A stretch of DNA of 17,278 bases from an uncultured Prevotellaceae bacterium (lineage in GTDB: Bacteria > Bacteroidota > Bacteroidia > Bacteroidales > Bacteroidaceae), in NCBI GenBank assembly GCA_900315105.1, contig OMXX01000085.1, forward strand, positions 1 to 17,278, given 5' to 3'. Positions 492 through 15,012 of this stretch are shown here, one piece after another. The translations under genes were made by a program, and so were the position numbers. The notes beneath the pieces are model-generated. The model saw only the letters and a list, made by a program, of their open reading frames with translations, did no database searches and was not told the origin of the DNA. How positions within the stretch are numbered: the stretch's first letter is position 1; the number at the start of each line of letters is the position of its first letter.

Positions 492-522
492 CAAAGTTAC
501 GAAAAGTCGAGAGCAGAACAAA
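492..522 (-). promoter_or_regulatory. Bacteroidetes promoter for the radical SAM gene
   Basis: On the minus strand TTTG (519-522) is followed after 19 bases by TAACTTTG (492-499), an exact match to the -33/-7 consensus of the Bacteroidetes primary sigma factor. Transcription should begin near 486, about 18 bases before the chosen start codon. The promoter lies wholly inside the 99-bp direct repeat, so the second copy at the far end of the island also carries it. Confidence 0.75.
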
Positions 523-590
523 AGATTTTAATCTTTTTTATGCCGAGACAGAGTAAGTTCGCCATCTCTGATGGCAAAGTTACGAAAAAA
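492..590. repeat. Left copy of a perfect 99-bp direct repeat
   Basis: This stretch is identical base for base to 14774-14872; homology ends abruptly on both sides (g versus a on the left, g versus c on the right). It contains two copies of CAAAGTTACGAAAA, i.e. TAACTTTG on the minus strand, and an internal stem GCCATC (561-566) pairing with GATGGC (570-575). It brackets the recombinase side of the island. It may be a duplication made on integration, or a dispersed intergenic repeat through which the island was gained or could be lost. Confidence 0.9.
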
Positions 591-884
591 GCTTGTAAAA
601 GCGAAGCGATTTTGGAAGATTAACGCAATTCGGCCTGAAATAAAGGCAAGACGGGGAAGAACGAGGAAGTTCAATTTGGGGCAAAAAGCAAATTAGGGAG
701 GAATGGTGAAGGAGTTAGGTTTCTAATTCGTAACCCAGGAAATGGGGTCTGAAGCGTGTAAAACTTCTTAAAACAACAACGCAAATCGAGGCAGAATGGC
801 GCACCATTCACCATCCTTTCACCGCCCGTTTCTTATTCCGCAAACAGCTACATTTTGCATAGCAATGGATGCCAAAAGAAATAG
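591..884. other. Non-coding left end of the island, possible recombinase-binding region
   Basis: No convincing gene lies in this stretch. It carries the left copy of a 25-base repeat (712-736), a GAATGGTG at 701-708 whose complement CACCATTC recurs at 802-809, a short perfect hairpin GAATGG/CCATTC (794-799 and 804-809), and the clustered motif CACCATTCACC followed by TCCTTTCACC (802-823). Position between the boundary repeat and the recombinase gene, and the density of short repeats, fit arm-type recombinase binding sites. This is an inference from layout. Confidence 0.35.
712..736 (+). repeat. Left copy of 25-base imperfect repeat ending AATTCGTAACCC
   Basis: Matches 14693-14717 in the same orientation at 21 of 25 positions, with the last 12 bases (AATTCGTAACCC) identical. 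In a circular form of the island the two copies would lie on either side of the 99-bp junction, as arm-type sites would. The right copy coincides with the small RNA terminator, so an alternative is that this is the remnant of a second terminator of the same type. Confidence 0.5.
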
Positions 885-892
885 TAGTTTTG
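885..892 (+). promoter_or_regulatory. -7 element TAGTTTTG for the recombinase gene
   Basis: TAGTTTTG fits TAnnTTTG and ends 28 bases before the ATG at 921. No good TTTG is found 19-21 bases upstream, so the promoter is incomplete by consensus and may need an activator. Confidence 0.4.
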
Positions 893-920
893 CAGCCAAA
901 ATTAAAAAAGAGTAAGAAAC

Positions 921-2100
921 ATGAGAAGTACTTTTAACATTCTGTTCTATGTGAACAAGAGTAAAGAAAAGAATGGTGTAGTGCCAGTGATGGGCAGGGT
1001 TACGATAAACGGAACTCAGAGCCAGTTCAGTTGTAAGAAGTCCATCCCGCTTGACATGTGGGACGTGAAGGGCAATTGTGCCAAAGGCCGTAGCAAGGAG
1101 GCATTGCAGATTAACCGCGAACTTGATAATATCAAGGCGCAAATCATCAAGCACTATCAGCACCTGTCAGACCGCGAGGCTTTTGTGACGGCAGAGATGG
1201 TGCGCAATTCCTATCAGGGTTTTGGGAGCGAGTACGAGACATTATTGAGTGCTTTCGACAAGGACATTGCCAATTTGGGCTATGGAGCGTTCGCGGAAGG
1301 ATGTGGCAGAGTTCATTCAGTCGCACTACCGTCGCGCAGACATGTCGATGCTGGAATTGACACCTGAGTTCATCAAGGACTTTGCCGCCTATCTCAGCAC
1401 AGACCGAGTGCTGGCTAACGGTACTATTTGGCAGCGATGCATGTGGCTGAAAGGCGTTGTGTTGAGAGCGCACTACAACGGTAAGATTCCCCGTAACCCG
1501 TTCGCACAGTTCCATATCAGCCCGAATTGCAAGGAAAGGGAATTCCTGACCGAAGAAGAACTGAAGGCTGTCGTAACCCATGAGTTCGAGGATGACAATC
1601 TGGCCTTCGTTCGTGACATTTTTGTATTCGTGTGCTTCACCGCCCTCTCGTTCATCGACGTGAAGAACCTGACGACGGACAACATCGTAGACATCAACGG
1701 TGACAAGTGGATTATCAGCAAGCGTCACAAGACCAACATCCCCTTCCAGGTGAAGCTGATGGACATACCCTTGCAGATTATTGACCGCTACAAACACCTA
1801 CAGGAAGACAAACTGGTGTTCGGCAAGATGAATTACTGGTCGATGTGTAAGAAACTGAAAACGGTGATGACAGCCTGCGGCATTGAGAAAGCCATCTCCT
1901 ACCATTGTGGCCGGCACTCTTTCGCAACCTTGGCGCTTTCAAAGGGAATGCCCATCGAGAGCGTGAGCCGTGTATTGGGACACACCAACATCGTGACCAC
2001 CCAGATTTATGCAAAAATCACAAGTCAGAAACTCGATAATGACCTGACGATGCTTGGTAACAAACTCAATGCATCATTCAAGGGCCTCAAAATGGCATAG
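921..2100 (+). pseudogene. Tyrosine recombinase/integrase, frameshifted
   Basis: Two overlapping frames together make a Bacteroides-type phage integrase. The first (921 to about 1292, about 124 residues) has the N-terminal arm-binding region (MRSTFNILFYVNKSKEKNGV) and the start of the SAM-like core-binding domain. The second resumes at RKDVAEFIQ (codon at 1294) and continues to 2100 with the catalytic domain, including HCGRHSF (H-x-x-R), LGHTNIVTTQIYAKI (the late His and the nucleophilic Tyr). The join needs one extra base near 1293. Residues usual between DKDIAN and the YGAF-like segment also seem missing: the summed length is about 392 residues against roughly 405-410 for relatives as remembered, consistent with a small deletion. 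Probably inactive; a sequencing error is the main alternative. It faces the HTH genes convergently. Confidence 0.8.
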
Positions 2101-2124
2101 AGTACAGTGGGCCAAAACCTCAAA

Positions 2125-2169
2125 GCAGAAAGACGAATGATTAGCGAAGTCTGTCATCCGTCTTTCTGC
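2125..2169. terminator. Hairpin terminator between convergent recombinase and HTH genes
   Basis: GCAGAAAGACG (2125-2135) pairs perfectly with CGTCTTTCTGC (2159-2169). After one mismatch the stem continues with ATGA (2137-2140) pairing with TCAT (2154-2157), leaving a 13-base loop. It sits 25 bases after the recombinase stop and 48 bases from the end of the minus-strand HTH gene, so it can serve both directions, although only weak T-runs follow. Confidence 0.65.
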
Positions 2170-2216
2170 GTTATATTCTCCCTGCACACGAACCAGTAAC
2201 GGCTCTTTCTTTTTCC

Positions 2217-2513
2217 CTATCGTTTATATGCCGGATGATAGCAACTCTCCAGAACCCTTTCCAAATCACTTTCACGATAAAGTACCTTGCCACCTAATAA
2301 CACATAAGGTAATACGCCATCATTTCGGTATTCCTGTAGTGTTCGTCTGCTGACCTTCAGAATCTGCGCCACCTCTCTGTCTGTCAAGTAGCGTTCACCA
2401 TCCAATAATGGACGATAATTGCCTATCACCTTCTTATAGAGGACAAGCAACTCCTTCATATTCTCCAGAGCATTCTTCACTCCAACATTATGCGGCATAA
2501 TCAGTTCATTCAT
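2217..2513 (-). CDS. Helix-turn-helix protein, excisionase/MerR-like (second of pair)
   Basis: 98 residues. The C-terminal half (about 43-89) reads YLTDREVAQILKVSRRTLQ then YRNDGVLPYVLLGGKVLYR, the HTH_17 winged-helix pattern of excisionase-family DNA-binding proteins: a helix-turn-helix recognising DNA, then a wing ending in a conserved aromatic/Arg. The N-terminal 40 residues are a probable helical extension. The ATG at 2513 overlaps the stop of the upstream HTH gene by 4 bases, so the two are co-translated. In Bacteroidales elements such pairs help the recombinase excise the element (Xis2c/Xis2d of CTnDOT is the known model) or regulate its genes; the role here is by analogy. Confidence 0.8.
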   Translation of the reverse strand: MNELIMPHNVGVKNALENMKELLVLYKKVIGNYRPLLDGERYLTDREVAQILKVSRRTLQEYRNDGVLPYVLLGGKVLYRESDLERVLESCYHPAYKR

Positions 2514-2830
2514 AAGTGCTTCGTTTTGAGATTACACATCTTATCATCCTTATCTCTACCAGCCACAGCATACAGAATCCTTTCCACATCCTCAGGCTTA
2601 TAGTACACCTTACGGTTGATTTGAGAATAGGCCAACGTTCCGTTGTCACGAAGCGTTTGTAATGTTCTTGGGCTGATGTTCAGCATTTGGCACACGTCTT
2701 GGTTATCAAGCCAGTTGTCCAACCTTTTGTCATTGCCTCTACTGGCCATCTCTTTCATCTTTGTGACGAAGCTATTGAAACTCGTCAGCAGTTCCTCGTA
2801 GGTACTGCGCTCAATTGATACAACTTCCAT
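2510..2830 (-). CDS. Helix-turn-helix protein, excisionase/MerR-like (first of pair)
   Basis: 106 residues. Residues about 39-88 (DNWLDNQDVCQMLNISPRT continuing LQTLRDNGTLAYSQINRKVY) form the same HTH_17 fold as its downstream neighbour, but the two differ clearly in sequence, so they are an old pair rather than a recent duplication. The N-terminus is helical with repeated acidic and basic residues; the tail (GRDKDDKMCNLKTKHL) is basic. First gene of a two-gene operon transcribed towards the recombinase. Likely role: excision accessory factor or transcriptional regulator of the island; no catalytic residues are expected. Confidence 0.8.
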   Translation of the reverse strand: MEVVSIERSTYEELLTSFNSFVTKMKEMASRGNDKRLDNWLDNQDVCQMLNISPRTLQTLRDNGTLAYSQINRKVYYKPEDVERILYAVAGRDKDDKMCNLKTKHL

Positions 2831-2857
2831 GTCTGTTTAGTTTTTGTAATTTGCGGG

Positions 2858-2865
2858 CAAAGGTA
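2858..2865 (-). promoter_or_regulatory. -7 element TACCTTTG for the HTH operon
   Basis: On the minus strand TACCTTTG matches TAnnTTTG and lies 27 bases before the ATG at 2830. No clear TTTG is present at the -33 position. Confidence 0.5.
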
Positions 2866-2948
2866 TATCATGATTCCCAGATAAGCTCATTCTGAAAATT
2901 CCTTGTTGTGAAATAACACTTCAGGGAAATATAATCCTAATGTCTGCC

Positions 2949-3027
2949 GAGCTTGCTCGTCATAAAGCAAACAAGCATCTTTGTGTGGTAGTCCACAGAA
3001 AAGTGCGTATTAGGCTACACCCTTCTA
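2949..3027. repeat. Left inverted repeat framing the cargo
   Basis: This segment matches the complement of 14475-14558 in four blocks: GAGCTTGCTC (2949-2958, 10/10), GCATCTTTGTGTGG (2975-2988, 13/14), a 23-base perfect block from CAGAAAAG to GGCTAC (2996-3018) and CCTTCTA (3021-3027, 7/7). The 7-base gap between blocks two and three differs in sequence between the ends but both form a hairpin; here TGTGG (2984-2988) pairs with CCACA (2993-2997) around TAGT. Could be transposon ends, recombination sites, or paired structural elements. Confidence 0.8.
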
Positions 3028-3134
3028 TGGAATCTATTTGCAGCATTGCAAACAAAATGTGATAGCAAACAGGTACCATACGAGTGTATCTTTAGAGATT
3101 TGTCAGTAAACAAAGTTAAAAATGATATATATTC

Positions 3135-3166
3135 TTCGCTAATTCCAATAAAAATGCGTAAATTTG
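3135..3166 (+). promoter_or_regulatory. Promoter for the cargo operon
   Basis: TTCG (3135-3138, one base off TTTG) lies 20 bases before TAAATTTG (3159-3166), which fits TAnnTTTG. Transcription should begin about 6 bases later, giving a leader of roughly 16 bases before the ATG at 3189. It is the only good promoter seen ahead of the chain of overlapping genes that starts the cargo. Confidence 0.6.
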
Positions 3167-3188
3167 CCAAATAATTATCTGTTTGTGT

Positions 3189-3572
3189 ATGAAATGGTGC
3201 AGAATATCTACCGGCACCGAATCGGTGCAAGTCGCTACGGACGAGATTGTATATATCCGTGCCGACGACAACTATTCTGACTTAGTACTGACGAATGACA
3301 AGGCAAAGTGCCGTGCCATTGTTCACATTGATCAATTCTATTACATCGGCACCCGCCACAAGGAAACCCTTTGGGATTTTGTTAAAGCCTTTCGCGAATA
3401 CGGCTTCATCGATACCATCTACATTACTGACGGTTCCGGTTATGTATTCTATCAAGATAAGTATGGTATTAGGCATGACATAGACGATTCGGCCGATTAT
3501 CCACATACGAGATGGAAAGGTATGGTTTCTTGGTTGTTATTTAGAAACAAAGATAAATGGCAAAGCAGTTAG
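3189..3572 (+). CDS. Small protein with LytTR-like N-terminal half
   Basis: 127 residues from the first ATG; a TTG two codons upstream is less likely given the promoter position. Residues about 10-35 (SVQVATDEIVYIRADDNYSD then LVLTND) resemble the first strands of a LytTR DNA-binding domain, in which the motif for reading DNA follows a D-I-x-Y-I-x-A-D-x-N-Y-S stretch. The rest (VKAFREYGFIDTIYITDGSG, ending RWKGMVSWLLFRNKDKW) does not follow the LytTR pattern, so this may be a chimera or a separate small family. No signal peptide or membrane segment is visible. Its last 16 bases overlap the LRR gene that follows, so the two are translated together. A regulatory role for the operon is possible but unproven. 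Confidence 0.6.
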   Translation: MKWCRISTGTESVQVATDEIVYIRADDNYSDLVLTNDKAKCRAIVHIDQFYYIGTRHKETLWDFVKAFREYGFIDTIYITDGSGYVFYQDKYGIRHDIDDSADYPHTRWKGMVSWLLFRNKDKWQSS

Positions 3573-6502
3573 ATTATACATTACTTACAAAGGTAACTCA
3601 GCAAGACTTGAACGAAGGGGTTTGGGATGCTGAGCATAAGGGCTTATATAGCAAGGACGGAAAGAGATTCTTGCAATATATGAGACCTAAAAACCTTGAA
3701 CGGGGAGTGCCAGATACATTCCAACTTAAAACTGGAGTGGAGGTGATCTGTGAGAAAGCATTCGCAAAAGGTTTTTTCCCACTTACATCTTTTATTATTC
3801 CCAAAAGTGTTGTTGCTATTGGAGATGAGGCTTTCCAACAGATGCATCTGCCTCAGCATGCCAATTTCACAATCACCAAAGGACTGAAATTCATTGGGTA
3901 CAAAATCTTAGGAAATTATGAAGGAATACTGAATATAATTATTGAAGAGGGAGTTAAGGAAATAGATTTAAGTTATATTCTTGATTGTGCCCCAGCAGTC
4001 ACTCTTTACCTGCCTTCTACATTAGATAGTATTGGTGATAAAGGCTTTGGGGAAGTTGATAATACAGAGCATATTCACTTAGCTGATGGAAACAAACATT
4101 TCTGTATGGACAATGGTATCTTGTATAATTACGACAAGACAAAACTATTAAGATGTCCTGTTACTAAAAGAGGAGAAGTCATAATCCCAGAAGGAGTTAA
4201 AACCATTGGAACCTATGCTTTTCGTCTTAGTGGATATAAATATGCTATCGACGCTGAACCAGAACGCAAACTGTCTGTTGTCCTACCTCAAAGTCTTACA
4301 AAGATCGAGTTAGGAGCATTCAGACATACATGGATTGATTCAATATTCATTCCTACAAACGTTTCTGAGATAGAGGAAGGCGCATTTGAAAATGCCATAC
4401 ATCTTAAAATAGATGTGTCGCCAGAGAATAAGTACTTCGAAGTGTGCAATAATTTGCTTATAGATAAAAGATCAAAGAAAGTGCTGTATGCGATGAGCAA
4501 TAAGGTGAAAATACCAAATGGAATCATGGAAATCGCCGATTACGCATTAGGTCATCTGCAATCAAGAAGAATAGTGATACCTGAAGGTGTAACTCGTATA
4601 GGCAAAGATAATCTCAATCTTAATAAAGCACTGAAAATTAGTCTGCCATCTACCCTGAAGGACATTACAAGGTCTTCGTTTGGGGGATTCTTTGGCGTCC
4701 CCCATACGATAGAGGTTCCCACAGGTATGGGAAAGGAGTTCAAAGAGAAATTATATGACTTTGGCGATTATGATATATCTTCATATATTCAGGAAAAGAA
4801 AGAATCCGTCATTTACGATTCGTCAGATTTGCTAAAAATCAGCGAGGATGGAAAGACCGTGCTTGGTGTGTATGATAATAACATCACTGCAATTGTGATT
4901 CCTTATGGTATAGAGGTTATTGGTGAAAGCGCTTTTCAAAGATGTTCTCTTTTGAGAGAAATCGTAATTCCGCCAACTGTAAGACGTATCGGTAAAGGAG
5001 CATTTTATGGATGTAAATACCTCCACTCTATAAATCTTCCTTCACATCTTAATAAAATCGAAAGTTTGGTTTTTTATGGTTGTCAGTTCTTGGAAAAAAT
5101 AGATATCCCCTCAGGTGTAGAAGAGATTGGGGTTTCTGCTTTCAATGATTGTTCGTCACTTAAAAAGATAGAGTTGCCACATAGTTTGAAGAAGATAGAA
5201 AGTAGTGCTTTTTCTAATTGCTTATCCCTACGCTCAATTAGAATTCCTGGAAGTGTCAAGTCTTTAGACGGCTTTTTATGTTTTTGGAAATGCAAAGGAT
5301 TGAGGAAAATAGAAATAGAAGAAGGTGTAGAAGTCTTGGGTAGTGTTTTTTCTGATTGTACATCTGTAAAGACCATAGTTATTCCAAACAGTCTAAAAAA
5401 AGTTGATGGTTATTCTTTTGAGTGTATGCCAGCATTGAGGAATATTGTATTGGCTAAAGATAATCCCAATTTTGTCTTTATTGATGGAGTACTATATTCA
5501 AAAGACATAAAGCGTATCATCCGTTATATCCCAAAGGGAGAATCCACTTTCGAAGTTCCCAAAAGCGTGAGAACTATAGATAAGATGGCTTTTCGTAATT
5601 GTAGGCATTTGGAAGAGATCATTCTTCATGATAGTATAAGGGAAATTGATTGTTTTGCTTTTGAACATTGTACAAAACTGAAAAAGATTGTACTATCCTC
5701 AAAACTAAAGAAATTAGGGAATAATACTTTTTTCGGTTGCTCATCTCTTTCTGAAGTTGTGATTCCTGATGGCTTGATAGATATTGGGTGGTGGAATTTT
5801 GGGTGGTGTAAATCATTAACTCATCTTCATCTTCCTGGAACACTAAGACACATCAGTACTGGTTGTGCGTCATCTATAAGAAGTTATACAGTAAGTTCAA
5901 ATAATAAGTATCTTACAGCAATAGACGGAATCGTTTATGATAAAAAGGTTACGAAATTGTTAGCAGTACCTAAAGATATTGCTTTGAAAACAATAAAAAT
6001 ACCTCAAACTGTGACAGAGATAGATAGCGTTGCTTTCTCTGATTGCAAAAAGATAAATCATATTGTATTACCAAAAGGATTAAAAAAGATTGGACATAGT
6101 GTTTTCGAAAACTGCATATCACTTCAAAGCATAGAACTGCCTAATGGTATTGAGATGATTCCTGAGCGTGCTTTCTATGGATGCAAAGCACTGAAAACTA
6201 TAAAACTTCCACACAAATTAAGAAGAATTGAAGAAGGAGCATTTTCGCTATGTGACAGTTTGACATCCTTAACAATTCCTCCAAGTGTAAAGAGTTTTGG
6301 AAGCTACCCATTTCCAAAGAGTTTAAAAGAATTACATATAGGCTATAAAGACCCAAAGGAAGCGGAGCTGTTTTGGAGAGATTTGTTTTTTTACCTTCAG
6401 AATCAAGAAGGAACGATTTTGTATGTTCCTAAGGGTACTAGAGAGAATTATATGAAAGACGATGAAATCCTTTTTGATACACTTATAATAGAAGAACAAT
6501 GA
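3557..6502 (+). CDS. BspA-type leucine-rich-repeat protein, no signal peptide (LRR1)
   Basis: 981 residues, built almost wholly of LRR_5 repeats of about 23 residues with the pattern IxIPxxVxxIGxxAFxxCxxL, for example IVIPPTVRRIGKGAFYGCKY. It has a non-repeat N-terminal region (about 1-55), a first repeat block to about residue 415, a capping segment at about 425 (LLKISEDGKTVLGVYDNN), then a second block to about 945 and a C-terminal cap (ILYVPKGTRENYM). Typical DGVLYSKD-type insertions occur inside the array. Most BspA-like proteins are exported adhesins, but the start MAKQLDYTLLTKVTQQD is polar, with no signal peptide and no sorting domain at the end, so it is predicted cytoplasmic. It is overlapped by the preceding gene (16 bases) and by the DUF1810 gene (4 bases). 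Probably a binding or sensing scaffold; ligand unknown. Confidence 0.85.
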   Translation: MAKQLDYTLLTKVTQQDLNEGVWDAEHKGLYSKDGKRFLQYMRPKNLERGVPDTFQLKTGVEVICEKAFAKGFFPLTSFIIPKSVVAIGDEAFQQMHLPQHANFTITKGLKFIGYKILGNYEGILNIIIEEGVKEIDLSYILDCAPAVTLYLPSTLDSIGDKGFGEVDNTEHIHLADGNKHFCMDNGILYNYDKTKLLRCPVTKRGEVIIPEGVKTIGTYAFRLSGYKYAIDAEPERKLSVVLPQSLTKIELGAFRHTWIDSIFIPTNVSEIEEGAFENAIHLKIDVSPENKYFEVCNNLLIDKRSKKVLYAMSNKVKIPNGIMEIADYALGHLQSRRIVIPEGVTRIGKDNLNLNKALKISLPSTLKDITRSSFGGFFGVPHTIEVPTGMGKEFKEKLYDFGDYDISSYIQEKKESVIYDSSDLLKISEDGKTVLGVYDNNITAIVIPYGIEVIGESAFQRCSLLREIVIPPTVRRIGKGAFYGCKYLHSINLPSHLNKIESLVFYGCQFLEKIDIPSGVEEIGVSAFNDCSSLKKIELPHSLKKIESSAFSNCLSLRSIRIPGSVKSLDGFLCFWKCKGLRKIEIEEGVEVLGSVFSDCTSVKTIVIPNSLKKVDGYSFECMPALRNIVLAKDNPNFVFIDGVLYSKDIKRIIRYIPKGESTFEVPKSVRTIDKMAFRNCRHLEEIILHDSIREIDCFAFEHCTKLKKIVLSSKLKKLGNNTFFGCSSLSEVVIPDGLIDIGWWNFGWCKSLTHLHLPGTLRHISTGCASSIRSYTVSSNNKYLTAIDGIVYDKKVTKLLAVPKDIALKTIKIPQTVTEIDSVAFSDCKKINHIVLPKGLKKIGHSVFENCISLQSIELPNGIEMIPERAFYGCKALKTIKLPHKLRRIEEGAFSLCDSLTSLTIPPSVKSFGSYPFPKSLKELHIGYKDPKEAELFWRDLFFYLQNQEGTILYVPKGTRENYMKDDEILFDTLIIEEQ

Positions 6503-6930
6503 TGGAGAATATAGATAATAAACAAACTAAGGCTCGACAGAGGAATCTGCTGCGATTCATTCATGCCCAGGATAGTGGTGGTATCTATGATGGTACTGGC
6601 ACTTATGCCGAGGCTTTGCAGGAGGTGAAAGACGGGCATAAGCATGGACACTGGATCTGGTATATTTTTCCTCAGATGATAGGCTTGGGGAAGTCTGAGA
6701 TTGCCCAGTTCTATGGCATCAATGGACGTGAAGAAGCCAAGGCTTACATCGAACATCCCGTACTTCGTGAACGTCTTGTGGAGATATGCGAAGCTGTTTT
6801 GAATAGCAAAACGTCAGTTTATGATTTATTCGGGCAGGATACAATCAAGGTTAGGGCGTGCATTCTGTTGTTCGCATCAGTCTGTGACATTCCCGTATTT
6901 AAGCAAATAAAGAGCAGATACCGTTGGTAA
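6499..6930 (+). CDS. DUF1810 family protein
   Basis: 143 residues. The segment LLRFIHAQDSGGIYDGTGTY, then EALQEVKDGHKHGHWIWYIF, PQMIGLGKSEIAQFYGI and YIEHPVLRERLVEIC is the DUF1810 signature; many members carry the misleading name calpastatin. The family is a small soluble single-domain protein without an established activity. Compared with relatives as remembered, this one has about 18 extra residues at the N-terminus and stops soon after VFKQIKSRYRW, without the usual FGG-type tail, so the C-terminus may be clipped. Its ATG overlaps the LRR1 stop (ATGA), tying it to the same operon. Base composition is visibly GC-richer than the LRR genes on either side. Confidence 0.85.
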   Translation: MMENIDNKQTKARQRNLLRFIHAQDSGGIYDGTGTYAEALQEVKDGHKHGHWIWYIFPQMIGLGKSEIAQFYGINGREEAKAYIEHPVLRERLVEICEAVLNSKTSVYDLFGQDTIKVRACILLFASVCDIPVFKQIKSRYRW

Positions 6931-6958
6931 TAAGTATACGAAATGGGTCTATATAATA

Positions 6959-7212
6959 TTTCGCGAGAACATCGATTCTCTGGTGTTCGTGCTGACGGGA
7001 ATGCGTGGCATCGACTTCAGCATGGCCTTTCAGGTAAAGATGGCCGACGAGTTGCCTCGCTACGCAGACTTCGGTATGGCCGTCCAAGCGTGCCAGCTTC
7101 GGCTCCGCCAATAATCTTCTATCTGACTTATAAGCGTGAGTTCGGTATCGCCCCTAGTGAGCGTTTCCAGAAGATTCGCAAGAAAGGGGATGTGTGGAGG
7201 TTCTTGTTATAA
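6959..7212 (+). pseudogene. AraC-family regulator C-terminal relic with two frameshifts
   Basis: Three frames must be joined to read an AraC-type helix-turn-helix: MADELPRYADFGMAVQA, then after one extra base (7091) ASFGSANN, then after one extra base (7116) FYLTYKREFGIAPSERFQKI. The last two match the second HTH of AraC proteins (F-G-S-x-x-x-F-x-x-x-Y/F-K-R-E-F-G-x-x-P-S-E). The upstream part is only weakly recognisable. No intact start, ligand-binding domain or single reading frame exists, so this is debris left between the DUF1810 and second LRR genes. Its higher GC content agrees with a different origin. A single 89-residue frame from 6943 covers part of it and should not be taken as a real protein. 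Confidence 0.55.
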
Positions 7213-7245
7213 TCAAATTGAAATAACGATTTATATTATAAGAGT

Positions 7246-9975
7246 ATGGATAATCTGTTAATTATATCAGACGATGGTAAAGAAGTAAAAGGTATAAGAG
7301 ATAAATCTGTTGTACATATATCTATTCCCAATGGAGTGACACGAGTCGGCAATAAAGCATTTGAGAATTGTATTTTTCTCCAGAATGTTGAAATACCCAA
7401 TGGGGTAAAAGCTATTGGATGGGCTGCATTTAAAGCGTGTAAGTCCTTAAAGAGCATAATTCTCCCAAATAGCATAACAGATGTTGAAAGTTGCGCTTTT
7501 GTAGATTGCTCATCTTTGACAGAAATATGCTTGTCAAATGCTATGTCTAACCTAAGTGTGGGCATTTTCCAAGGATGTACATCATTAAGAAAAATCACGA
7601 TTCCAAATAGCATAACAAGAATAGGCGGAGGTTCATTCAAGGGATGTTTATCTCTTAAAGATATTACTATCCCTGAAAATGTGACTTCTATTGTAGGTAA
7701 CGCATTTGAAGGAACAAAATGGTATAATGATTTGCCTGATGGAGTTATATATATCAATAAGATTCTATTCAAGATTAAAGGCACTTTTCAAGATTGTACA
7801 GTTTGTGTTGATGAAGGAACGATTAGTATTGCCAATCAAGCATTTAAGGGCTGTAGTAGTTTAACAAATATCACAATTCCTAATAGCCTAACTAACATTG
7901 GAACGTGTGCATTCGAAGAATGTTCGTCTTTACAAAGTATTGTTATTCCAAATAGCATAAAGAGTATTCCTTATAGTGCATTTAGGAGGTGTGCTTCTCT
8001 ACAAAGAATTACACTCCCAGATAGTATTACTGATATTGGCTGTCAAGCATTTAAAGACTGCTTGTCTCTTGAAACTGTAGTTATTCCTGAAAGAGTCTCA
8101 TGTATAGGAGAAGAAGCCTTTTCTGGTTGTTCATCCTTACAGAATATCGAAATTCCCAAAAGTGTGACAAGCATTGGTGATAAAGCGTTTTCAGGATGTT
8201 CATCTCTTGATGCTATTAACATCCCTGACAGCATCATTTCAATTGCAAGTAATGCATTTGAAAGGACAAAATGGTATAATGACCAACCTGATGGGGTCGT
8301 ATACATAAACAAGATTCTTTTAAACATTAAAGGTTCTTTTCAAGAAAGGACCATCAGTATTATAGAAGGTACTGTTGGTATTGCTAATAAAGCGCTTGAA
8401 GCCTGTACTTCTTTACAAAGTATTGTGATTCCCAATAGTGTGAAAAGCATTGGTGATTGTGCCTTTAAAGAGTGTTCGACTCTTGAAACTATAGATATTC
8501 CTAATAGTTTATTTTGTATAGGAAAAGAAGCTTTTTCTGGTTGTTCTTCCTTACAGAATATCGAAATTCCCAATAGTGTGACTAGTATTGGTGATAAAGC
8601 ATTTTCCGGATGTGCATCACTTGAAAATGTTGATATCCCAAATAGTATAACGCAATTAAACGATTATATATTCTACAGATGTAACTCATTAAAATGTATT
8701 GATATTCCTAATAGTGTAATTAGTATTGGCAACCACACATTCTCTGATTGCAAATCACTTGAGAGTGTTGATATCCCAAATAGCGTAAGAGAAATAGGTG
8801 CTAAGGGGAGGCCTATGTATCAAGGGTATTCATTTTACCATACTGGATTAAAGGAAGTATATATCCCGAAGAGTGTAAAAAAAATAGGGAAGCATGTATT
8901 TGAATGCTCTACATTGGAAAACATTATTGTGGACGGTGAGAATCAAGATTATATGTCTATTGATGGAGTTTTGTTTGAGAAGTGTGACAATAGTAATGAA
9001 ACAACTCCTATATATAAGTTATTAACATACCCTCCCCGAAAAGAACGAACCTCGTATAACATTCCTGATTTTGTTACTACAATAGGCCAATATTCTTTTT
9101 CTGATTGTTGCATTCTAAAGAACATCGAGATTCCTAATGGTGTCATTTCTATTGAGGATAGTGCTTTTTCTGGCTGTTCTTCACTTATGAATATAGAACT
9201 TCCAAATAGTGTTGTGAAAATTGGTACATACGCGTTCTGTAACTGCAAATCCTTAAAATGTATAGATATACCAGAAAGTGTTACAACCATCGGCTATTTT
9301 GCTTTTAACCGTACAGGATTGACGAAAGTTTACATTCCCAATACAGTAAAAGAAATTGGGGAGCATGCCTTTTGCAATTCCCCAATTGAAAAGATATGTG
9401 TTGCAGAAGGTAATGAATACTTTATGTCTAAAGATGGCATTTTATTTCAAAAAAATGAAGACAGAGGTGCTGATGTAACATATAAGATTCTTAAATATCC
9501 TCCTCAACGGAATGATGTAACGTATACTGTTGATAATTTTGTGACAAAATTAGATTGCTGTGCCTTCAAAAAAGCAGAAAGTTTAGAGGAGATAATTATG
9601 CATAATGGCATTTCAGACTTTGGAGGTCAACAGACATTTGCCAAGTGTATTTCATTAAAAGAAATCAATATTCCACCTATGGTGGAATGTTTACCTATGT
9701 CATGTTTTGAGGATTGTAGAGCATTGGAAAGCGTATACATATCAAACAGAACTCATTTGACAATCGAGGAGGATGCTTTTAGTGGCTGCTATTCGCTTAA
9801 GAAATTGCATTTTCGATTAGAAGAGACTAGTGAGATAAAAATTGAAGATAAAGCATTTCCTAATTCATTGTTTGATAATTGCGTGCTATGTATTCCCCCA
9901 GGGACTCGATGGGCATATAGACATCATCATATATTAGGAAAGTTCAAGAATATTGAGATAGAAAAGAAGGATTGA
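7246..9975 (+). CDS. BspA-type leucine-rich-repeat protein, no signal peptide (LRR2)
   Basis: 909 residues of LRR_5 repeats with a 23-residue period, such as NIEIPNSVTSIGDKAFSGC. The start LLIISDDGKEVKGIRDKSVV is polar with no signal peptide and resembles the internal cap at about residue 425 of LRR1, so the two proteins are related. Long internal copies are visible: the AFE-TKWYND region recurs 552 bases apart (8 repeats) and the FSGCSSLQNIEIP region 414 bases apart (6 repeats), both exact multiples of 69 bases, pointing to recent repeat duplication. The C-terminus has the family cap (LCIPPGTRWAYRHH). Its stop is 2 bases before the ATG of the GHKL ATPase gene, so the products are likely made together. 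Predicted cytoplasmic recognition protein; target unknown. No clear promoter is seen directly upstream. Confidence 0.85.
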   Translation: MDNLLIISDDGKEVKGIRDKSVVHISIPNGVTRVGNKAFENCIFLQNVEIPNGVKAIGWAAFKACKSLKSIILPNSITDVESCAFVDCSSLTEICLSNAMSNLSVGIFQGCTSLRKITIPNSITRIGGGSFKGCLSLKDITIPENVTSIVGNAFEGTKWYNDLPDGVIYINKILFKIKGTFQDCTVCVDEGTISIANQAFKGCSSLTNITIPNSLTNIGTCAFEECSSLQSIVIPNSIKSIPYSAFRRCASLQRITLPDSITDIGCQAFKDCLSLETVVIPERVSCIGEEAFSGCSSLQNIEIPKSVTSIGDKAFSGCSSLDAINIPDSIISIASNAFERTKWYNDQPDGVVYINKILLNIKGSFQERTISIIEGTVGIANKALEACTSLQSIVIPNSVKSIGDCAFKECSTLETIDIPNSLFCIGKEAFSGCSSLQNIEIPNSVTSIGDKAFSGCASLENVDIPNSITQLNDYIFYRCNSLKCIDIPNSVISIGNHTFSDCKSLESVDIPNSVREIGAKGRPMYQGYSFYHTGLKEVYIPKSVKKIGKHVFECSTLENIIVDGENQDYMSIDGVLFEKCDNSNETTPIYKLLTYPPRKERTSYNIPDFVTTIGQYSFSDCCILKNIEIPNGVISIEDSAFSGCSSLMNIELPNSVVKIGTYAFCNCKSLKCIDIPESVTTIGYFAFNRTGLTKVYIPNTVKEIGEHAFCNSPIEKICVAEGNEYFMSKDGILFQKNEDRGADVTYKILKYPPQRNDVTYTVDNFVTKLDCCAFKKAESLEEIIMHNGISDFGGQQTFAKCISLKEINIPPMVECLPMSCFEDCRALESVYISNRTHLTIEEDAFSGCYSLKKLHFRLEETSEIKIEDKAFPNSLFDNCVLCIPPGTRWAYRHHHILGKFKNIEIEKKD

Positions 9976-9977
9976 AT

Positions 9978-12900
9978 ATGATTATGACACAAGAAGAATA
10001 TCTCGCTTCGGTAGAGAAATCAAAGGAAGAGGCTCACGATGAGACAATGTGGGGAAAACCTGCTCGTGACATCATAACTGGTATTGGTAATAATAGCGGT
10101 ATTAGACCTGTCCGCGCAATATGGGAGTTGGTTCAAAATGCCCGCGACGTAGTGGGCGAAGGTCAAAGAGCCCATATTGTGTTTACTAGAAAAAAAGATT
10201 CTCTCGAATTTAAGCACAATGGTATTCCTTTTACTCATAAGACCATAGAAGCATTAATCATGCAGACCAGTTCCAAGGTTAGTAGTAATAATGTTCAGGT
10301 TGGTCAGTATGGAACAGGTTTCTTAACTACCCATATGTTTGGCTTGATGTTCAAATTGACCGCTCCACTATTAACTTCAGAAGAATTCCCCCGATATTAC
10401 AAGATCTCAGAATTTGAGATTGACAGATCAGCAACTGACAAAGAGGTAATGCGAGGCAAACTGAAAGAGCAGTGGAAAAAGACACAAGATTGGGGGCGTG
10501 ATTATGCACAAACTACAGACACTCCATTTGAATACACTTTATTCAGTTATATTCATGAAAGTAATCAGGCAAGGTTAAATGCAGAAAGCGCTTTTGCAGA
10601 CGCTCCAGATATGGTTCCTTTTGTTCTGAGCATTAATCCAAATGTAGAAAGTATATGCTTTGAAGATCATATTAAATACGAGACTATAACCTATTTGCGT
10701 GAAAAGCAGGATATGGACTACGTGGAGGATCTTACAGATGGTAAAATATATAAAACCAAAGTCCATAGAACAAAGATTAATACTAACAATCTTCAAAAAG
10801 AAGAGAAAGATTACTTTGTGTATAGTATTGTCAGTAATGATAAAACAGAAGATGAACCCTTTGTCAATAAGGTTGTAGTTATGTTGCCCATAACAGAGGA
10901 TGCGGATGGCTCATTAAGGGTGTTGCAATTTGACAAATCATTACCTCAGATTTATATTTATCTCCCTCTGTTAGGCACAGAAGAATGGGGGGTCAATTTT
11001 CTGCTTCATTCGCCATTATTTACTTGTGACAAAGATAGCCGTGATAGTTTGCGGCTTGTTGGAAATGGGCAGAATAATGATGACCAAGCAGAAGCAAATA
11101 GATCTATAATCGAATTGGGAAATAAATTAATATGCCAGTTTATTGATAAAAAAATAACGGCACTGCACGATGCAAAGTATTTGTGCCAAGCCTCATTCAA
11201 GACACAACAGCCTGAAGCAAAATTGAGCGATTATTATAATAGTTTGCAGACTTTCTGGCGCAATAAATTTGAAAATCTTTGTATTGTTGAAGGAGGCTTG
11301 TCAAGTAGATATCTTGTAAGTGCCATAAAGGTCTTAGATGAAACTTTAGCAAAGGCTTGCGAAGAGGATTCTACATTGTTGGATGCAATTTATGGCCTTT
11401 TTGATAGAAATAGACTTTGGACAGTGCCGAAAAAAGAGGATATGGTGTATTGGAGCGATACTATCAATAGATGGTATCGAGATGAGACTACTAATAACCA
11501 TCAGCTAACGATAGAAGATTTGGCAAAAACGATTCCCTCACTTACTATTACTGAAAATGATTTGACGTGGCTGCATAAGTTGTGTAACTACATTTCAAAG
11601 AATCAAGATACATTGTTAGATACATATACCTTAATACCTAACGAGAGACTCTCTCTTCACAAAAAAACTCCTTTACAAAAGACTGTATCGTTTGCAAAGG
11701 TTGTCAAGGATGCTATAGCATTAATGGATCCTGCATCAGTGGACAATTTTGTACATCCGACTTTTGCTGATTTAGCGAATGATACGGTATTCGATTATAC
11801 TAAAGCAAAGGAAAGCATTACAAACTACATCAACAATCATAATGCAGAACAGAATGGCGTGCGAAACAACATTATGACGAACAAAAACCATGATTTGCAG
11901 AACCCTCAAATGCAGAAGCTATTTAATTTAAACATGTATGAAGACAAGAAATTGAGCGACGATGCAGTACAAGTAATCCTAAATCTGTATCAAACCCTTC
12001 TTCCTGAAGATAGTGAAGCCATTCCTGCAAAATTGTTGCCAGTAATTGCGTCATATTATGACAAAACTTTGCAAGAGAACGTTGTAAGGCTTGACAAATC
12101 GTATGAATTGGATGTACGCCAATTCTATACAACTTTAATATATGACTCGCTCTTCAAATTTACTTTGAGAGACGATAAGCAAACCAAGGCCACATGGGTC
12201 AAGAGTATGGTGGAACTTGTATATAGCTATTCGGATATCAAGAGCTATCTGACATATTATCAGGTATATCCTGACCAACAGGGAAACTACAAGTATGCTG
12301 AGTGGCTTAAGAAAAAGGCTGCGACATTACCCGATAGAGCATTGGAAATATATGATACTATTATAAGAAATGTGTCATCAACAGATAATTCGAAGAGTAT
12401 AAAAAAGGAACTTGTTTCTTCAGAGTTTGCGAATTGGTTTGTTAGTACAAATATTCTTGATGGATTGAGTCAATGTAAAGAGATAGAAGATGAAGTTCAG
12501 AAGAAAGGTTACTCTATAACAAATTATGAGCATCAAAAACTCATAGTAGAAATTGTTGAGCATCTGACCCGCAATGATGTAGAAAATGAACATTGGCACG
12601 CATTGTTTAGGGATATTGATAAGAACAAGGGACAAATCATGTTTTCAGTGATACAGAGTCAAACTAAGAAAGACAGTATCTTTGCCTTGATGAAAGTGGA
12701 CGATGAGAGCAAGTTGAAAGCAATTGCAGAATTGGTAAATAACCCAGATTTTGATAGTATCCTTACGATTTCGAAGAATGTTATTGACCAAAAAGCACGT
12801 GAAGCTAATGATTTCCAATTCAAAAAGGACTTAGGTGCTTATGTAGAAGATATTCTCTTGAAGGAATTAAATAAGGAGCTTGGTAATAATGTCATAGAGG

Positions 12901-13370
12901 TGCCAGAGCCTGTCCGTAACGAGCAGGGAGGACAAGATTTAATACTTAGAATAAATGGAGAAGACTTTTATTATTTCGAAGTCAAGTCTCGTTGGACAAG
13001 TGATCGCTCTGTATTGATGAGTACGGAACAGCATAGGCAATCTTACGAGAACAAGGAACATTATGCTCTGCTTGCTGCAGATATGGTTGGCTATGATATG
13101 GATAAAGTTCGCAGGCATGAGTTCCCCAAATTTGAGGAAGTGAAAGAAAGAATAGTTGTACTTGATGAGATTGGCAAACTCAATGAAAGATTGAAAGACG
13201 CCACATTAAATGACGATAACCAAGTCCATGTAGCAGGAGGTTATCATGTCCTCATATCACAAGATGTTATTCGGAACAATGCAAAAAGTTTCGATTCCTT
13301 TATCGATTCATTAAAACTTGCTATAAGAAAGAGAATTCAAGAAACAAATGCTATTAGTAAAAATTTCTAA
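9978..13370 (+). CDS. GHKL (sacsin/Hsp90-like) ATPase with C-terminal PD-(D/E)xK nuclease domain (DUF3883-like)
   Basis: 1130 residues. The N-terminus has the Bergerat ATP-binding fold: N-box IWELVQNARDVV (E50, N54, D57), FKHNGIPFT (N81-G82), and the glycine loop GQYGTGFLTTHMFG (G109, G112, G114), in the style of sacsin-type bacterial proteins. A long, mostly helical middle follows without a recognised domain. The C-terminus (about 955-1070) has GQDLILRINGEDFYYFEVKS, where D987, E1001 and K1003 form D-x13-ExK, the metal-binding core of PD-(D/E)xK nucleases, preceded by a helix (LGAYVEDILLKELNKELG) as in DUF3883 domains. Likely an ATP-driven switch controlling nucleic-acid cleavage. GHKL ATPases linked to restriction-type nucleases are known in prokaryotic defence loci. 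The ATG at 9978 is chosen; a TTG at 9972 would overlap LRR2, and an ATG at 9984 is also possible. Cleavage itself is inferred. Confidence 0.8.
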   Translation: MIMTQEEYLASVEKSKEEAHDETMWGKPARDIITGIGNNSGIRPVRAIWELVQNARDVVGEGQRAHIVFTRKKDSLEFKHNGIPFTHKTIEALIMQTSSKVSSNNVQVGQYGTGFLTTHMFGLMFKLTAPLLTSEEFPRYYKISEFEIDRSATDKEVMRGKLKEQWKKTQDWGRDYAQTTDTPFEYTLFSYIHESNQARLNAESAFADAPDMVPFVLSINPNVESICFEDHIKYETITYLREKQDMDYVEDLTDGKIYKTKVHRTKINTNNLQKEEKDYFVYSIVSNDKTEDEPFVNKVVVMLPITEDADGSLRVLQFDKSLPQIYIYLPLLGTEEWGVNFLLHSPLFTCDKDSRDSLRLVGNGQNNDDQAEANRSIIELGNKLICQFIDKKITALHDAKYLCQASFKTQQPEAKLSDYYNSLQTFWRNKFENLCIVEGGLSSRYLVSAIKVLDETLAKACEEDSTLLDAIYGLFDRNRLWTVPKKEDMVYWSDTINRWYRDETTNNHQLTIEDLAKTIPSLTITENDLTWLHKLCNYISKNQDTLLDTYTLIPNERLSLHKKTPLQKTVSFAKVVKDAIALMDPASVDNFVHPTFADLANDTVFDYTKAKESITNYINNHNAEQNGVRNNIMTNKNHDLQNPQMQKLFNLNMYEDKKLSDDAVQVILNLYQTLLPEDSEAIPAKLLPVIASYYDKTLQENVVRLDKSYELDVRQFYTTLIYDSLFKFTLRDDKQTKATWVKSMVELVYSYSDIKSYLTYYQVYPDQQGNYKYAEWLKKKAATLPDRALEIYDTIIRNVSSTDNSKSIKKELVSSEFANWFVSTNILDGLSQCKEIEDEVQKKGYSITNYEHQKLIVEIVEHLTRNDVENEHWHALFRDIDKNKGQIMFSVIQSQTKKDSIFALMKVDDESKLKAIAELVNNPDFDSILTISKNVIDQKAREANDFQFKKDLGAYVEDILLKELNKELGNNVIEVPEPVRNEQGGQDLILRINGEDFYYFEVKSRWTSDRSVLMSTEQHRQSYENKEHYALLAADMVGYDMDKVRRHEFPKFEEVKERIVVLDEIGKLNERLKDATLNDDNQVHVAGGYHVLISQDVIRNNAKSFDSFIDSLKLAIRKRIQETNAISKNF

Positions 13371-13406
13371 ACCCTGTTATAAGTAATGGGATTGAAATAA
13401 AATATG

Positions 13407-13414
13407 TAATTTTG
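13407..13414 (+). promoter_or_regulatory. -7 element TAATTTTG for the RhuM gene
   Basis: TAATTTTG matches TAnnTTTG and ends 15 bases before the ATG at 13430. No convincing TTTG lies 19-21 bases upstream. It suggests that the RhuM gene can be transcribed apart from the LRR2/ATPase pair, which ends 37 bases earlier. Confidence 0.45.
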
Positions 13415-13429
13415 CAAACGAAACGAGAT

Positions 13430-14446
13430 ATGGCGAAAAGAAGAGAAATAAGAAACAGTACTGCTGAGTTCCTAATCTTTCAGATAGAAGGAAAGGAACA
13501 AGGGATAGAGGTATACTATAAGGACAAAACAGTGTGGTGTACCCAGAAAGCAATGGGTATGCTGTTTGACTGCTCAACGGACAATGTGGGACTTCATCTG
13601 AAGAACATATTTACAAGCGGTGAACTGGTTAAGGATTCAGTTACCGAGAAAATCTCGGCAACTGCCTCTGATGGGAAGAACTATATGACTCAGTTTTACA
13701 ACCTCGATGCCATCATAAGTGTGGGATATCGTGTCAATAGCATCCGGGCTACTCAGTTCCGCCAGTGGGCCACAAGTGTACTTCGTGAATATGCCATTCG
13801 TGGTTATGTGCTGGACAGGAAACGAATGGAGAATGGTACGTTCTTGGATGAGGACTACTTTGAACACCTGTTAGCAGAGATTCGTGAGATTCGTCTGTCT
13901 GAGCGACGTTTTTATCAGAAATTGACGGACATCTATGCGACAGCAATTGATTACAATCGTGATGCGCCAACGACAAGACTCTTCTTCAAGATGATGCAAA
14001 ACAAGATGCACTATGCCGTTCATGGACGTACGGCAGCTGAACTGATAGTAGAACGAGCCGATGCCGAACAAGAACACATGGGACTGACCACTTGGGAGAA
14101 TGCACCTGACGGAAAGATTGTCAAGACAGATGTATCAATTGCCAAGAACTACCTAAAAGAGGTGGAACTGGCAGACATGGGACAACTTGTGAATGGTGTA
14201 CTGGAATTGGCAGAACGTATGGCTAAACGTCATATCCCTATGACAATGGAGGATTGGGCCAAACAGATTGATACCATCTTGGCGGCAGGTGGTAATGAAG
14301 TGCTGCAAACAGCAGGTTCAGTAACAGCGGACGAAGCCAAAGAGCATGCTGAGACAGAATTTGAGAAGTACCGCATCGTTCAAGATCGTTTGTTCCAGAG
14401 CGACTTTGACAAGTATTTGGGTGGGTTACCTTTTGAAAGTGAGTAA
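13430..14446 (+). CDS. rhuM: RhuM family protein
   Basis: 338 residues from the ATG; a TTG six codons upstream overlaps the -7 element and is rejected. The N-terminal region is a DNA-binding-like domain (VYYKDKTVWCTQKAMGMLFD, LHLKNIFTSGELVKDS), followed by the family hallmark YNLDAIISVGYRVNSIRATQ and FRQWATSVLREYAIRGYVLD. The second half carries MQNKMHYAVHGRTAAELIVE, RADAEQEHMGLTTWE and VSIAKNYLKEVELADMGQLV, all standard for full-length RhuM proteins, so it looks intact. The name comes from a Salmonella pathogenicity-island gene; its biochemical activity is unknown, and homologues are frequent in restriction-modification and defence regions. It lies downstream of the GHKL-nuclease gene on the same strand but has its own -7 element, and its GC content is higher than that of the LRR genes. 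Confidence 0.85.
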   Translation: MAKRREIRNSTAEFLIFQIEGKEQGIEVYYKDKTVWCTQKAMGMLFDCSTDNVGLHLKNIFTSGELVKDSVTEKISATASDGKNYMTQFYNLDAIISVGYRVNSIRATQFRQWATSVLREYAIRGYVLDRKRMENGTFLDEDYFEHLLAEIREIRLSERRFYQKLTDIYATAIDYNRDAPTTRLFFKMMQNKMHYAVHGRTAAELIVERADAEQEHMGLTTWENAPDGKIVKTDVSIAKNYLKEVELADMGQLVNGVLELAERMAKRHIPMTMEDWAKQIDTILAAGGNEVLQTAGSVTADEAKEHAETEFEKYRIVQDRLFQSDFDKYLGGLPFESE

Positions 14447-14474
14447 GATTCCTGTATGCAACATATCATTTCGG

Positions 14475-14558
14475 TAGAAGGACGTAGCCTAATACGCACT
14501 TTTCTGGCAGGTGCCACAAAAAGATGCCGCAATCAGTTCAATAGCGTTGAGCAAGCTC
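14475..14558. repeat. Right inverted repeat framing the cargo
   Basis: Complement of the left repeat: TAGAAGG (14475-14481), a 23-base perfect block (14484-14506), CCACAAAAAGATGC (14514-14527) and GAGCAAGCTC (14549-14558). Spacing of the first three blocks is the same as on the left; the gap to the last is 21 bases instead of 16. The variable 7 bases again form a hairpin, TGGCA (14505-14509) pairing with TGCCA (14512-14516). It begins 28 bases after the RhuM stop. Confidence 0.8.
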
Positions 14559-14580
14559 AGAATAAAAAGTTGAATATGAA

Positions 14581-14612
14581 TTTGGTTCTTTCAAAAAGAT
14601 TGATTACCTTTG
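14581..14612 (+). promoter_or_regulatory. Consensus promoter for the small RNA
   Basis: TTTG (14581-14584), a 20-base spacer and TACCTTTG (14605-14612) match both boxes of the Bacteroidetes housekeeping promoter exactly; this and the radical SAM promoter are the best in the window. No open reading frame with a plausible start follows, which points to an RNA product. Confidence 0.7.
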
Positions 14613-14692
14613 CACCCGATGATGAGTCATAAAACGGCTGGTGGCTCACCGTCGGGTGTTCTTTGATGCAGTTTATCGCAGAATGTGGAATT

Positions 14693-14717
14693 GAGTACGG
14701 TTACCAATTCGTAACCC
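14693..14717 (+). repeat. Right copy of 25-base imperfect repeat
   Basis: Same orientation as 712-736, 21 of 25 bases identical including AATTCGTAACCC. Here it forms the perfect stem of the small RNA terminator, whereas in the left copy the matching arm is imperfect (GGTTTC against GTAACC). Confidence 0.5.
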
Positions 14718-14725
14718 TATTTTTT
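14699..14725 (+). terminator. Intrinsic terminator of the small RNA
   Basis: GGTTAC (14699-14704) and GTAACC (14711-14716) form a perfect 6-bp stem with a 6-base loop, followed after three bases by six T residues (14720-14725). Confidence 0.7.
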
Positions 14726-14773
14726 CTCAATCCCCCAGACTGCCTTTATATAAAGAAAAACTGAGAATTCTTA

Positions 14774-14872
14774 CAAAGTTACGAAAAGTCGAGAGCAGAA
14801 CAAAAGATTTTAATCTTTTTTATGCCGAGACAGAGTAAGTTCGCCATCTCTGATGGCAAAGTTACGAAAAAA
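14774..14872. repeat. Right copy of the perfect 99-bp direct repeat
   Basis: Identical to 492-590 and in the same orientation. Here the minus-strand promoter it contains does not lead into a gene, because the radical SAM gene lies behind the other copy. This suggests that one copy is the original upstream region of the radical SAM gene and the other arose with the island. Confidence 0.9.
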
Positions 14873-14924
14873 CGAGAGAAATGCAAAAGGAAAACTCGTT
14901 TTTCTTTTCATTTCCGAGTGCATG

Positions 14925-14949
14925 GTAAGTTCGGCGAAGCCAAAGTTAC
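14925..14949. repeat. Palindromic module GTAAGTTCGGC / GCCAAAGTTAC
   Basis: GTAAGTTCGGC, three bases, then GCCAAAGTTAC. The 99-bp repeats carry the same plan at 553-583 and 14835-14865: GTAAGTTCGCC, a loop, then GGCAAAGTTAC. Three such modules in one window, two of them inside the boundary repeats, suggest a dispersed intergenic repeat family with built-in -7 elements (TAACTTTG on the minus strand). Confidence 0.45.
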
Positions 14950-15012
14950 ATGAAGTTAAGCGCAAAAACAAAAGAAATCATTCTTTTTTGCTGAGTTTTC
15001 GAAAATTATGCT

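What the first reader, a model, noticed from the sequence alone, without database searches (positions are those of the whole stretch)
7246..13370. Two-gene operon pairing an intracellular LRR protein with a GHKL ATPase-nuclease: candidate new defence system
The LRR2 stop and the ATPase start are 2 bases apart, so their products are probably made in fixed ratio. LRR2 is a 909-residue recognition-type array without a signal peptide. Its partner has an intact Bergerat fold (E50/N54/D57, GQYGTG) and a C-terminal D987-x13-E1001-x-K1003 nuclease core. Sensor-like repeat protein plus ATP-switched nuclease, on an island with a recombinase and RhuM, follows the plan of anti-phage systems. Family knowledge: GHKL ATPases linked with restriction-type nucleases, and DUF3883 domains in defence loci, are known; I know of no described system with a BspA-type LRR sensor.
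Basis: partly seen in the sequence, partly recalled or inferred. Interest (0 to 1): 0.85.

Follow-up and report, generated by a model that had tools for sequence, protein, structure and literature searches.

The report
Known-family defence ATPase-nuclease beside passenger LRR
The ATPase-nuclease closely matches an already catalogued anti-phage protein family (Tiamat/TmtA) on what looks like a mobile gene island, and the repeat protein beside it was not found next to its relatives, so this is probably not a new two-part immune system.

Summary
In detail: an LRR_5 protein without signal peptide (7246-9975) is followed after 2 bases by a 1130-aa ATPase-nuclease gene (9978-13370). GHKL motifs and a C-terminal D987/E1001/K1003 core are conserved, and the C-terminal domain modelled alone resembles PD-(D/E)XK nucleases. 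PADLOC matches the ATPase end to end to TmtA (Tiamat; 3e-212). Of 44 other TmtA-type loci, 0 have an LRR_5 gene in the flanks held (38 have at least 2 kb upstream). The two closest (77% identity) have RhuM beside TmtA and no LRR. No listed LRR2 relative exceeds 46% identity, while the ATPase has one at 98%. 8 of 44 TmtA genes lie with type I restriction genes, a GHKL theme in print since 2008. Best reading: a Tiamat-family effector carried with RhuM and other low-GC cargo on a 14.3-kb probable integrative island bounded by 99-nt exact direct repeats; the LRR gene is probably a passenger. Neighbours of the closest ATPase relatives (89-98%) could not be read. New member of a known kind.

The parts
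492..590 (.). left copy of a 99-nt exact direct repeat, candidate attL
921..2100 (+). tyrosine recombinase gene split over two frames (Arm-DNA-bind_5 in 921-1367; SAM-like and catalytic domains in 1249-2100); described only
2217..2830 (-). two HTH_17 genes, the 2217-2513 one excisionase-like
3557..6502 (+). LRR1, 981-aa LRR_5 protein without evident signal peptide
6499..6930 (+). DUF1810 protein overlapping the LRR1 stop by 4 nt; match ends at profile position 123 of 136
7246..9975 (+). LRR2, 909-aa LRR_5 protein without evident signal peptide; probable passenger
9978..13370 (+). TmtA (Tiamat-family) GHKL ATPase with C-terminal PD-(D/E)XK-type domain; alternative start at 9984
12690..13367 (+). 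C-terminal NOV_C/PD-(D/E)XK piece modelled on its own (holds D987, E1001, K1003)
13412..14446 (+). RhuM-family gene (PADLOC candidate PDC-S05)
14774..14872 (.). right copy of the 99-nt exact direct repeat, candidate attR

Best explanation
The 1130-aa protein is a member of the TmtA/Tiamat defence family. Inferred mechanism: a sacsin/Hsp90-like GHKL ATPase (about residues 1-514) followed by a helical middle region works as an ATP-driven switch or clamp that senses infection and unleashes a C-terminal PD-(D/E)XK nuclease on DNA. It is carried, with RhuM, on a 14.3-kb probable integrative island. The LRR gene directly upstream is most likely a cytoplasmic BspA-type passenger that may share the transcript but is not a required subunit. 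Shown: profile match, conserved motifs, predicted folds, no LRR beside the relatives examined. Inferred: nuclease activity, trigger, anti-phage role of this copy, mobility of the island.
Confidence: 0.8

Rival explanations
1. LRR2 is a lineage-specific sensor subunit that gates the TmtA ATPase-nuclease: the reader's two-gene system, restricted to a small recent clade.
For: Close spacing, no evident signal peptide, low-GC genes on one strand. In L004, L008, L017 and L062 a recognition subunit (HsdS) ends 4-5 nt before TmtA, so TmtA can follow a recognition gene.
Against: LRR_5 in 0 of 44 other loci, the two at 77% identity included. No close LRR2 homologue listed although P0004 is 98% identical to the ATPase and lies on a 22.9-kb contig. 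DUF1810 overlaps LRR1 by 4 nt, so tight spacing is not special here.
Confidence: 0.08
2. TmtA and RhuM are the functional unit, LRR2 being inserted cargo.
For: RhuM lies next to TmtA in the window, in L002 (same order, 75% DNA identity) and in L001 (upstream, a different RhuM with a sub-threshold Bro-N match).
Against: RhuM was found near TmtA in only 2 of 44 other loci, and RhuM proteins 91-96% identical to the window's fill all 120 listed hits from many contigs, so chance sharing of an island suffices.
Confidence: 0.1
3. The ATPase is not a defence effector here but a housekeeping or stress GHKL protein.
For: No phenotype data for this copy; the sacsin/Hsp90-like fold is shared with chaperones.
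Against: Full-length TmtA match; sporadic presence (8 of 399, 4 of 393 and 14 of 345 genomes, counts that include the centre genome G002 each time and G006 once); type I restriction genes beside it in 8 of 44 loci; nuclease-like C-terminus.
Confidence: 0.05

Closest known systems
Tiamat (TmtA), PADLOC PDLC03967; that TmtA is Tiamat of Millman et al. 2022 is recalled, only papers that mention Tiamat were seen
   Same: End-to-end profile match, GHKL ATP-binding start
   Different: Sits directly behind an LRR_5 gene; PADLOC holds several TmtA models and these calls do not show which one holds the tested protein
MORC/paraMORC GHKL ATPases of restriction-modification operons (Iyer et al. 2008, PMC2292703; abstract and passages seen)
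   Same: GHKL ATPase allied with nucleases and restriction genes; several TmtA relatives lie with type I genes
   Different: Here the nuclease domain is fused and no helicase or methylase is beside it; membership of paraMORC was not tested
NOV_C (PF13020) restriction-type nuclease domain; DUF3883 is called a novel REase domain in PMC3710099 (passage seen)
   Same: NOV_C match and PD-(D/E)XK core
   Different: Fused to a sacsin-type ATPase rather than a SNF2 helicase; that PF13020 is the former DUF3883 is recalled
BspA-type LRR_5 proteins of Bacteroidales
   Same: LRR2 and LRR1 are ordinary LRR_5 arrays
   Different: No evident signal peptide, as in 35 of 120 listed LRR2 hits by a crude hydropathy cut; N-terminal cap shared with P0159, P0177, L082 and L083

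Membership tests
Tiamat/TmtA | full-length match to a TmtA profile | tested here: met
   3.3e-212, profile 5-1060 of 1063; PADLOC gives no cut-off in this output
Tiamat/TmtA | GHKL (Bergerat) ATP-binding motifs | tested here: met
   E50, N54, D57, GQYGTG invariant in 84; sacsin/Hsp90-like model
Tiamat/TmtA | acts as a single gene (recalled) | tested here: inconclusive
   no constant neighbour among those sought: LRR 0, RhuM 2, type I genes 8 of 44 loci
Tiamat/TmtA | protects against phage | not testable with these tools
   needs a plaque assay
PD-(D/E)XK nuclease (NOV_C/DUF3883) | conserved D...ExK core | tested here: met
PD-(D/E)XK nuclease (NOV_C/DUF3883) | restriction-type fold | tested here: met
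   predicted long helix, core strands 988-992, 995-1005, 1012-1015, helix 1016-1024, strand 1029-1035; D212, Hjc, RecU, PvuII matches; Foldseek E-values weak
PD-(D/E)XK nuclease (NOV_C/DUF3883) | cuts DNA | not testable with these tools
   biochemical assay needed
LRR-sensor plus ATPase-nuclease two-gene system (proposed) | LRR gene conserved directly upstream of the ATPase | tested here: not met
   0 of 44 other loci; 38 with at least 2 kb upstream; the 89-98% relatives were not readable
paraMORC GHKL family | sequence membership in paraMORC families | not tested
   only context compared with PMC2292703
integrative element | integrase plus bounding direct repeats | tested here: inconclusive
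   99-nt exact repeats 492-590 and 14774-14872 and an integrase are there, but the integrase is split over two frames and the repeat could be a dispersed one
integrative element | empty site with one repeat copy | tested here: inconclusive
   no genome held for the window; right-flank gene not found at E 1e-180 in 399 genomes

The most novel reading that the evidence does not exclude
TmtA is a portable ATP-gated nuclease that can be plugged behind different recognition genes: HsdS specificity subunits in type I loci, and, in this lineage, a cytoplasmic BspA-type LRR protein acting as sensor.
Probability: 0.06. Interest if true: 0.7.

Novelty: new member of a known kind. Interest (0 to 1): 0.25.

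Why it matters
It turns a claimed new system into a mapped member of a known one whose mechanism the papers seen call unknown (passages). The gain is mechanistic: this branch of TmtA carries a conserved PD-(D/E)XK-type domain behind a sacsin/Hsp90-like ATPase, giving concrete residues for testing how Tiamat works, and its relatives recur beside type I restriction genes.

Tried and rejected
LRR2 as conserved partner: rejected (0 of 44). RhuM as conserved partner: not supported (2 of 44; RhuM is common). Phage or plasmid carriage: no relative of the ATPase in the phage records, none confirmed in viral contigs, three distant partial matches in plasmids, no near DNA match of 500-15000 in plasmids. 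Sequence search of solved structures: three weak MORC2 hits (E 0.49, a GHKL ATPase) for the whole protein, two unrelated hits at E 0.2 for the C-terminal piece. Host and empty site: no whole genome held; the right-flank SpoIIE protein had relatives of at most 37% identity at E 1e-100 in 5 of 44 genomes of one genus and none at E 1e-180 in 399, so the host genus stays open. The inverted repeat 2975-3046/14456-14527: its 22-nt core hit one viral contig, L079, not studied; a 31-nt piece of the direct repeat hit none there. Contig lengths of listed LRR2 and RhuM hits were compared by eye with those of listed TmtA hits: two equal lengths seen (5202 for P0029/P0202, 3415 for P0102/P0264), both too short for both genes. 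Papers: nine searches. (LRR with anti-phage, defense system, Bacteroidales) and one search gave no paper. Of the papers naming Tiamat only passages of PMC10482375, PMC12926258 and PMC12629846 were seen, so 'no mechanism, no LRR pairing' holds for these passages only. Passages of PMC8011034 were seen and not used. Gene labels in loci rest on phmmer with a few queries at E 1e-4, so the type I and RhuM counts may be low.

Full report
What is there. ORF listing and translation confirm LRR2 (7246-9975, 909 aa) and the ATPase ORF (9978-13370, 1130 aa) on the same strand. Two bases part the stop from the first ATG; relatives L001 and L002 start at the window's third residue, so 9984 is as likely a start, with a gap of 8 bases. 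LRR2 is an LRR_5 array (4.2e-208) whose first 40 residues hold no strongly hydrophobic segment; by the same crude cut 35 of 120 listed LRR2 hits lack one too. The strand also carries LRR1, a DUF1810 gene overlapping LRR1 by 4 nt, and RhuM, so tight spacing is not special to the LRR2-ATPase pair.

What the ATPase is. Pfam gives only a sub-threshold NOV_C for the whole protein and NCBIfam a sacsin-type ATP-binding domain (2.2e-16), but PADLOC's TmtA model PDLC03967 matches end to end (3.3e-212), as it does for 8 of 8 homologues scanned. That TmtA is the Tiamat protein of Millman et al. 2022 is recalled. Passages of PMC10482375 and PMC12926258 put Tiamat among systems of unknown mechanism; PMC10482375 also finds it almost always chromosomal in Actinobacteria. 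Passages of PMC12629846 describe it as frequent in an island hotspot of Pseudomonas. 905 homologues passed E 0.001 among the 7991 candidates scored. In 84 aligned sequences E50, N54, D57, GQYGTG, E1001 and K1003 are invariant and D987 is at least 90%. Among 35 rows from the window and loci, some near-duplicates, all rows with a residue at these sites agree: 34 of 34 for the first three, 33 of 33 for D987, 35 of 35 for E1001 and K1003.

Is the LRR a partner? Loci came from a genome scan with an alignment of 23 homologues (26 loci) and from searches of 399, 393 and 345 genomes (8, 4 and 14 with a match, the centre genome G002 included each time; the draws overlap). From these, 19 stretches with longer flanks were fetched, leaving out places already held. 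Of the 45 loci, 44 hold a TmtA-type ORF (L025 does not). LRR_5 genes were sought with both window LRR proteins at E 1e-4: 0 of 44 have one in the flanks held, while the window does. 38 of the 44 have at least 2 kb upstream, 34 at least 2 kb downstream, and 29 have a gene of at least 1000 aa with 2 kb upstream. L013, L015 and L024 come from one assembly with the same neighbourhood, and several rows are fragments or diverged. The same search finds the LRR genes in L082 and L083. The two closest loci, L001 and L002 at 77% identity, have no LRR; L001 holds only 2.5 kb upstream. In L002 DNA similarity to the window covers the ATPase and RhuM only; in L001 the ATPase and parts of an upstream RhuM.

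A second line: the LRR2 relatives listed are at most 46% identical (7999 candidates scored, 120 listed), though the ATPase has a 98% relative on a 22.9-kb contig and four at 89-90%. A close LRR2 on those contigs should have headed the list. This is indirect, since the contigs were not read. A third line: a 40-residue search with the LRR2 N-terminal cap hit 2 of 201 genomes. One LRR gene lies between an ABC ATPase and a MacB permease (L082); the other lies beside genes that look like housekeeping ones by eye (L083; one neighbour scanned, no Pfam match).

What does accompany TmtA. RhuM: 2 of 44 (L001, L002), but proteins 91-96% identical to the window's RhuM fill all 120 listed hits, from many contigs. 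Type I restriction genes: 8 of 44 (L004, L008, L017, L019, L023, L061, L062, L063), with HsdS 4-5 nt upstream in four. In a tree of 33 rows (L015, L024 and a duplicate of the window left out) these fall in three places as drawn; the count made against the three other labelled rows needs only one change, and some branches are long. GHKL ATPases in restriction operons were described by Iyer et al. 2008 (PMC2292703; abstract and passages seen), so the theme is not new.

The island. A 99-nt exact direct repeat at 492-590 and 14774-14872 frames 14.3 kb with a tyrosine recombinase near its left end, split over two frames, and two HTH_17 genes, one excisionase-like. Imperfect 25-nt repeats lie just inside (712-736, 14693-14717). 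GC is 33-39% in most windows from 3501 to 13500, 43% at 6501-7500, against 44-56% from 14501 on. No empty site could be compared.

Verdict. A Tiamat-family ATPase-nuclease on a probable integrative island, with an LRR gene that is probably a passenger. An LRR partner limited to the unread 89-98% clade remains possible.

Noticed in passing
L004, L008, L017, L019, L023, L061, L062, L063: TmtA-family genes lie inside or beside type I restriction genes, in four cases 4-5 nt behind HsdS, in three places of the drawn tree.
   Followed up: partly
window 492-590 and 14774-14872: 99-nt exact direct repeats bound the island; 25-nt imperfect repeats lie just inside (712-736, 14693-14717).
   Followed up: partly
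window 2975-3046 and 14456-14527: Inverted repeat of 72 nt (76%) with an identical 23-nt core flanks the LRR-to-RhuM cargo; one viral contig (L079) holds a 22-nt core.
   Followed up: partly
window 921-2100: Integrase gene split over two reading frames.
   Followed up: no
window 3183-3572 and 6943-7212: Short ORFs without a Pfam match that may be gene remnants.
   Followed up: no
L020:8943-11132; L019:8083-9837; L023:8055-9809: A second ATPase gene lies next to TmtA: HATPase_c_3 in L020; in L019 and L023 GHKL-like by eye only.
   Followed up: no
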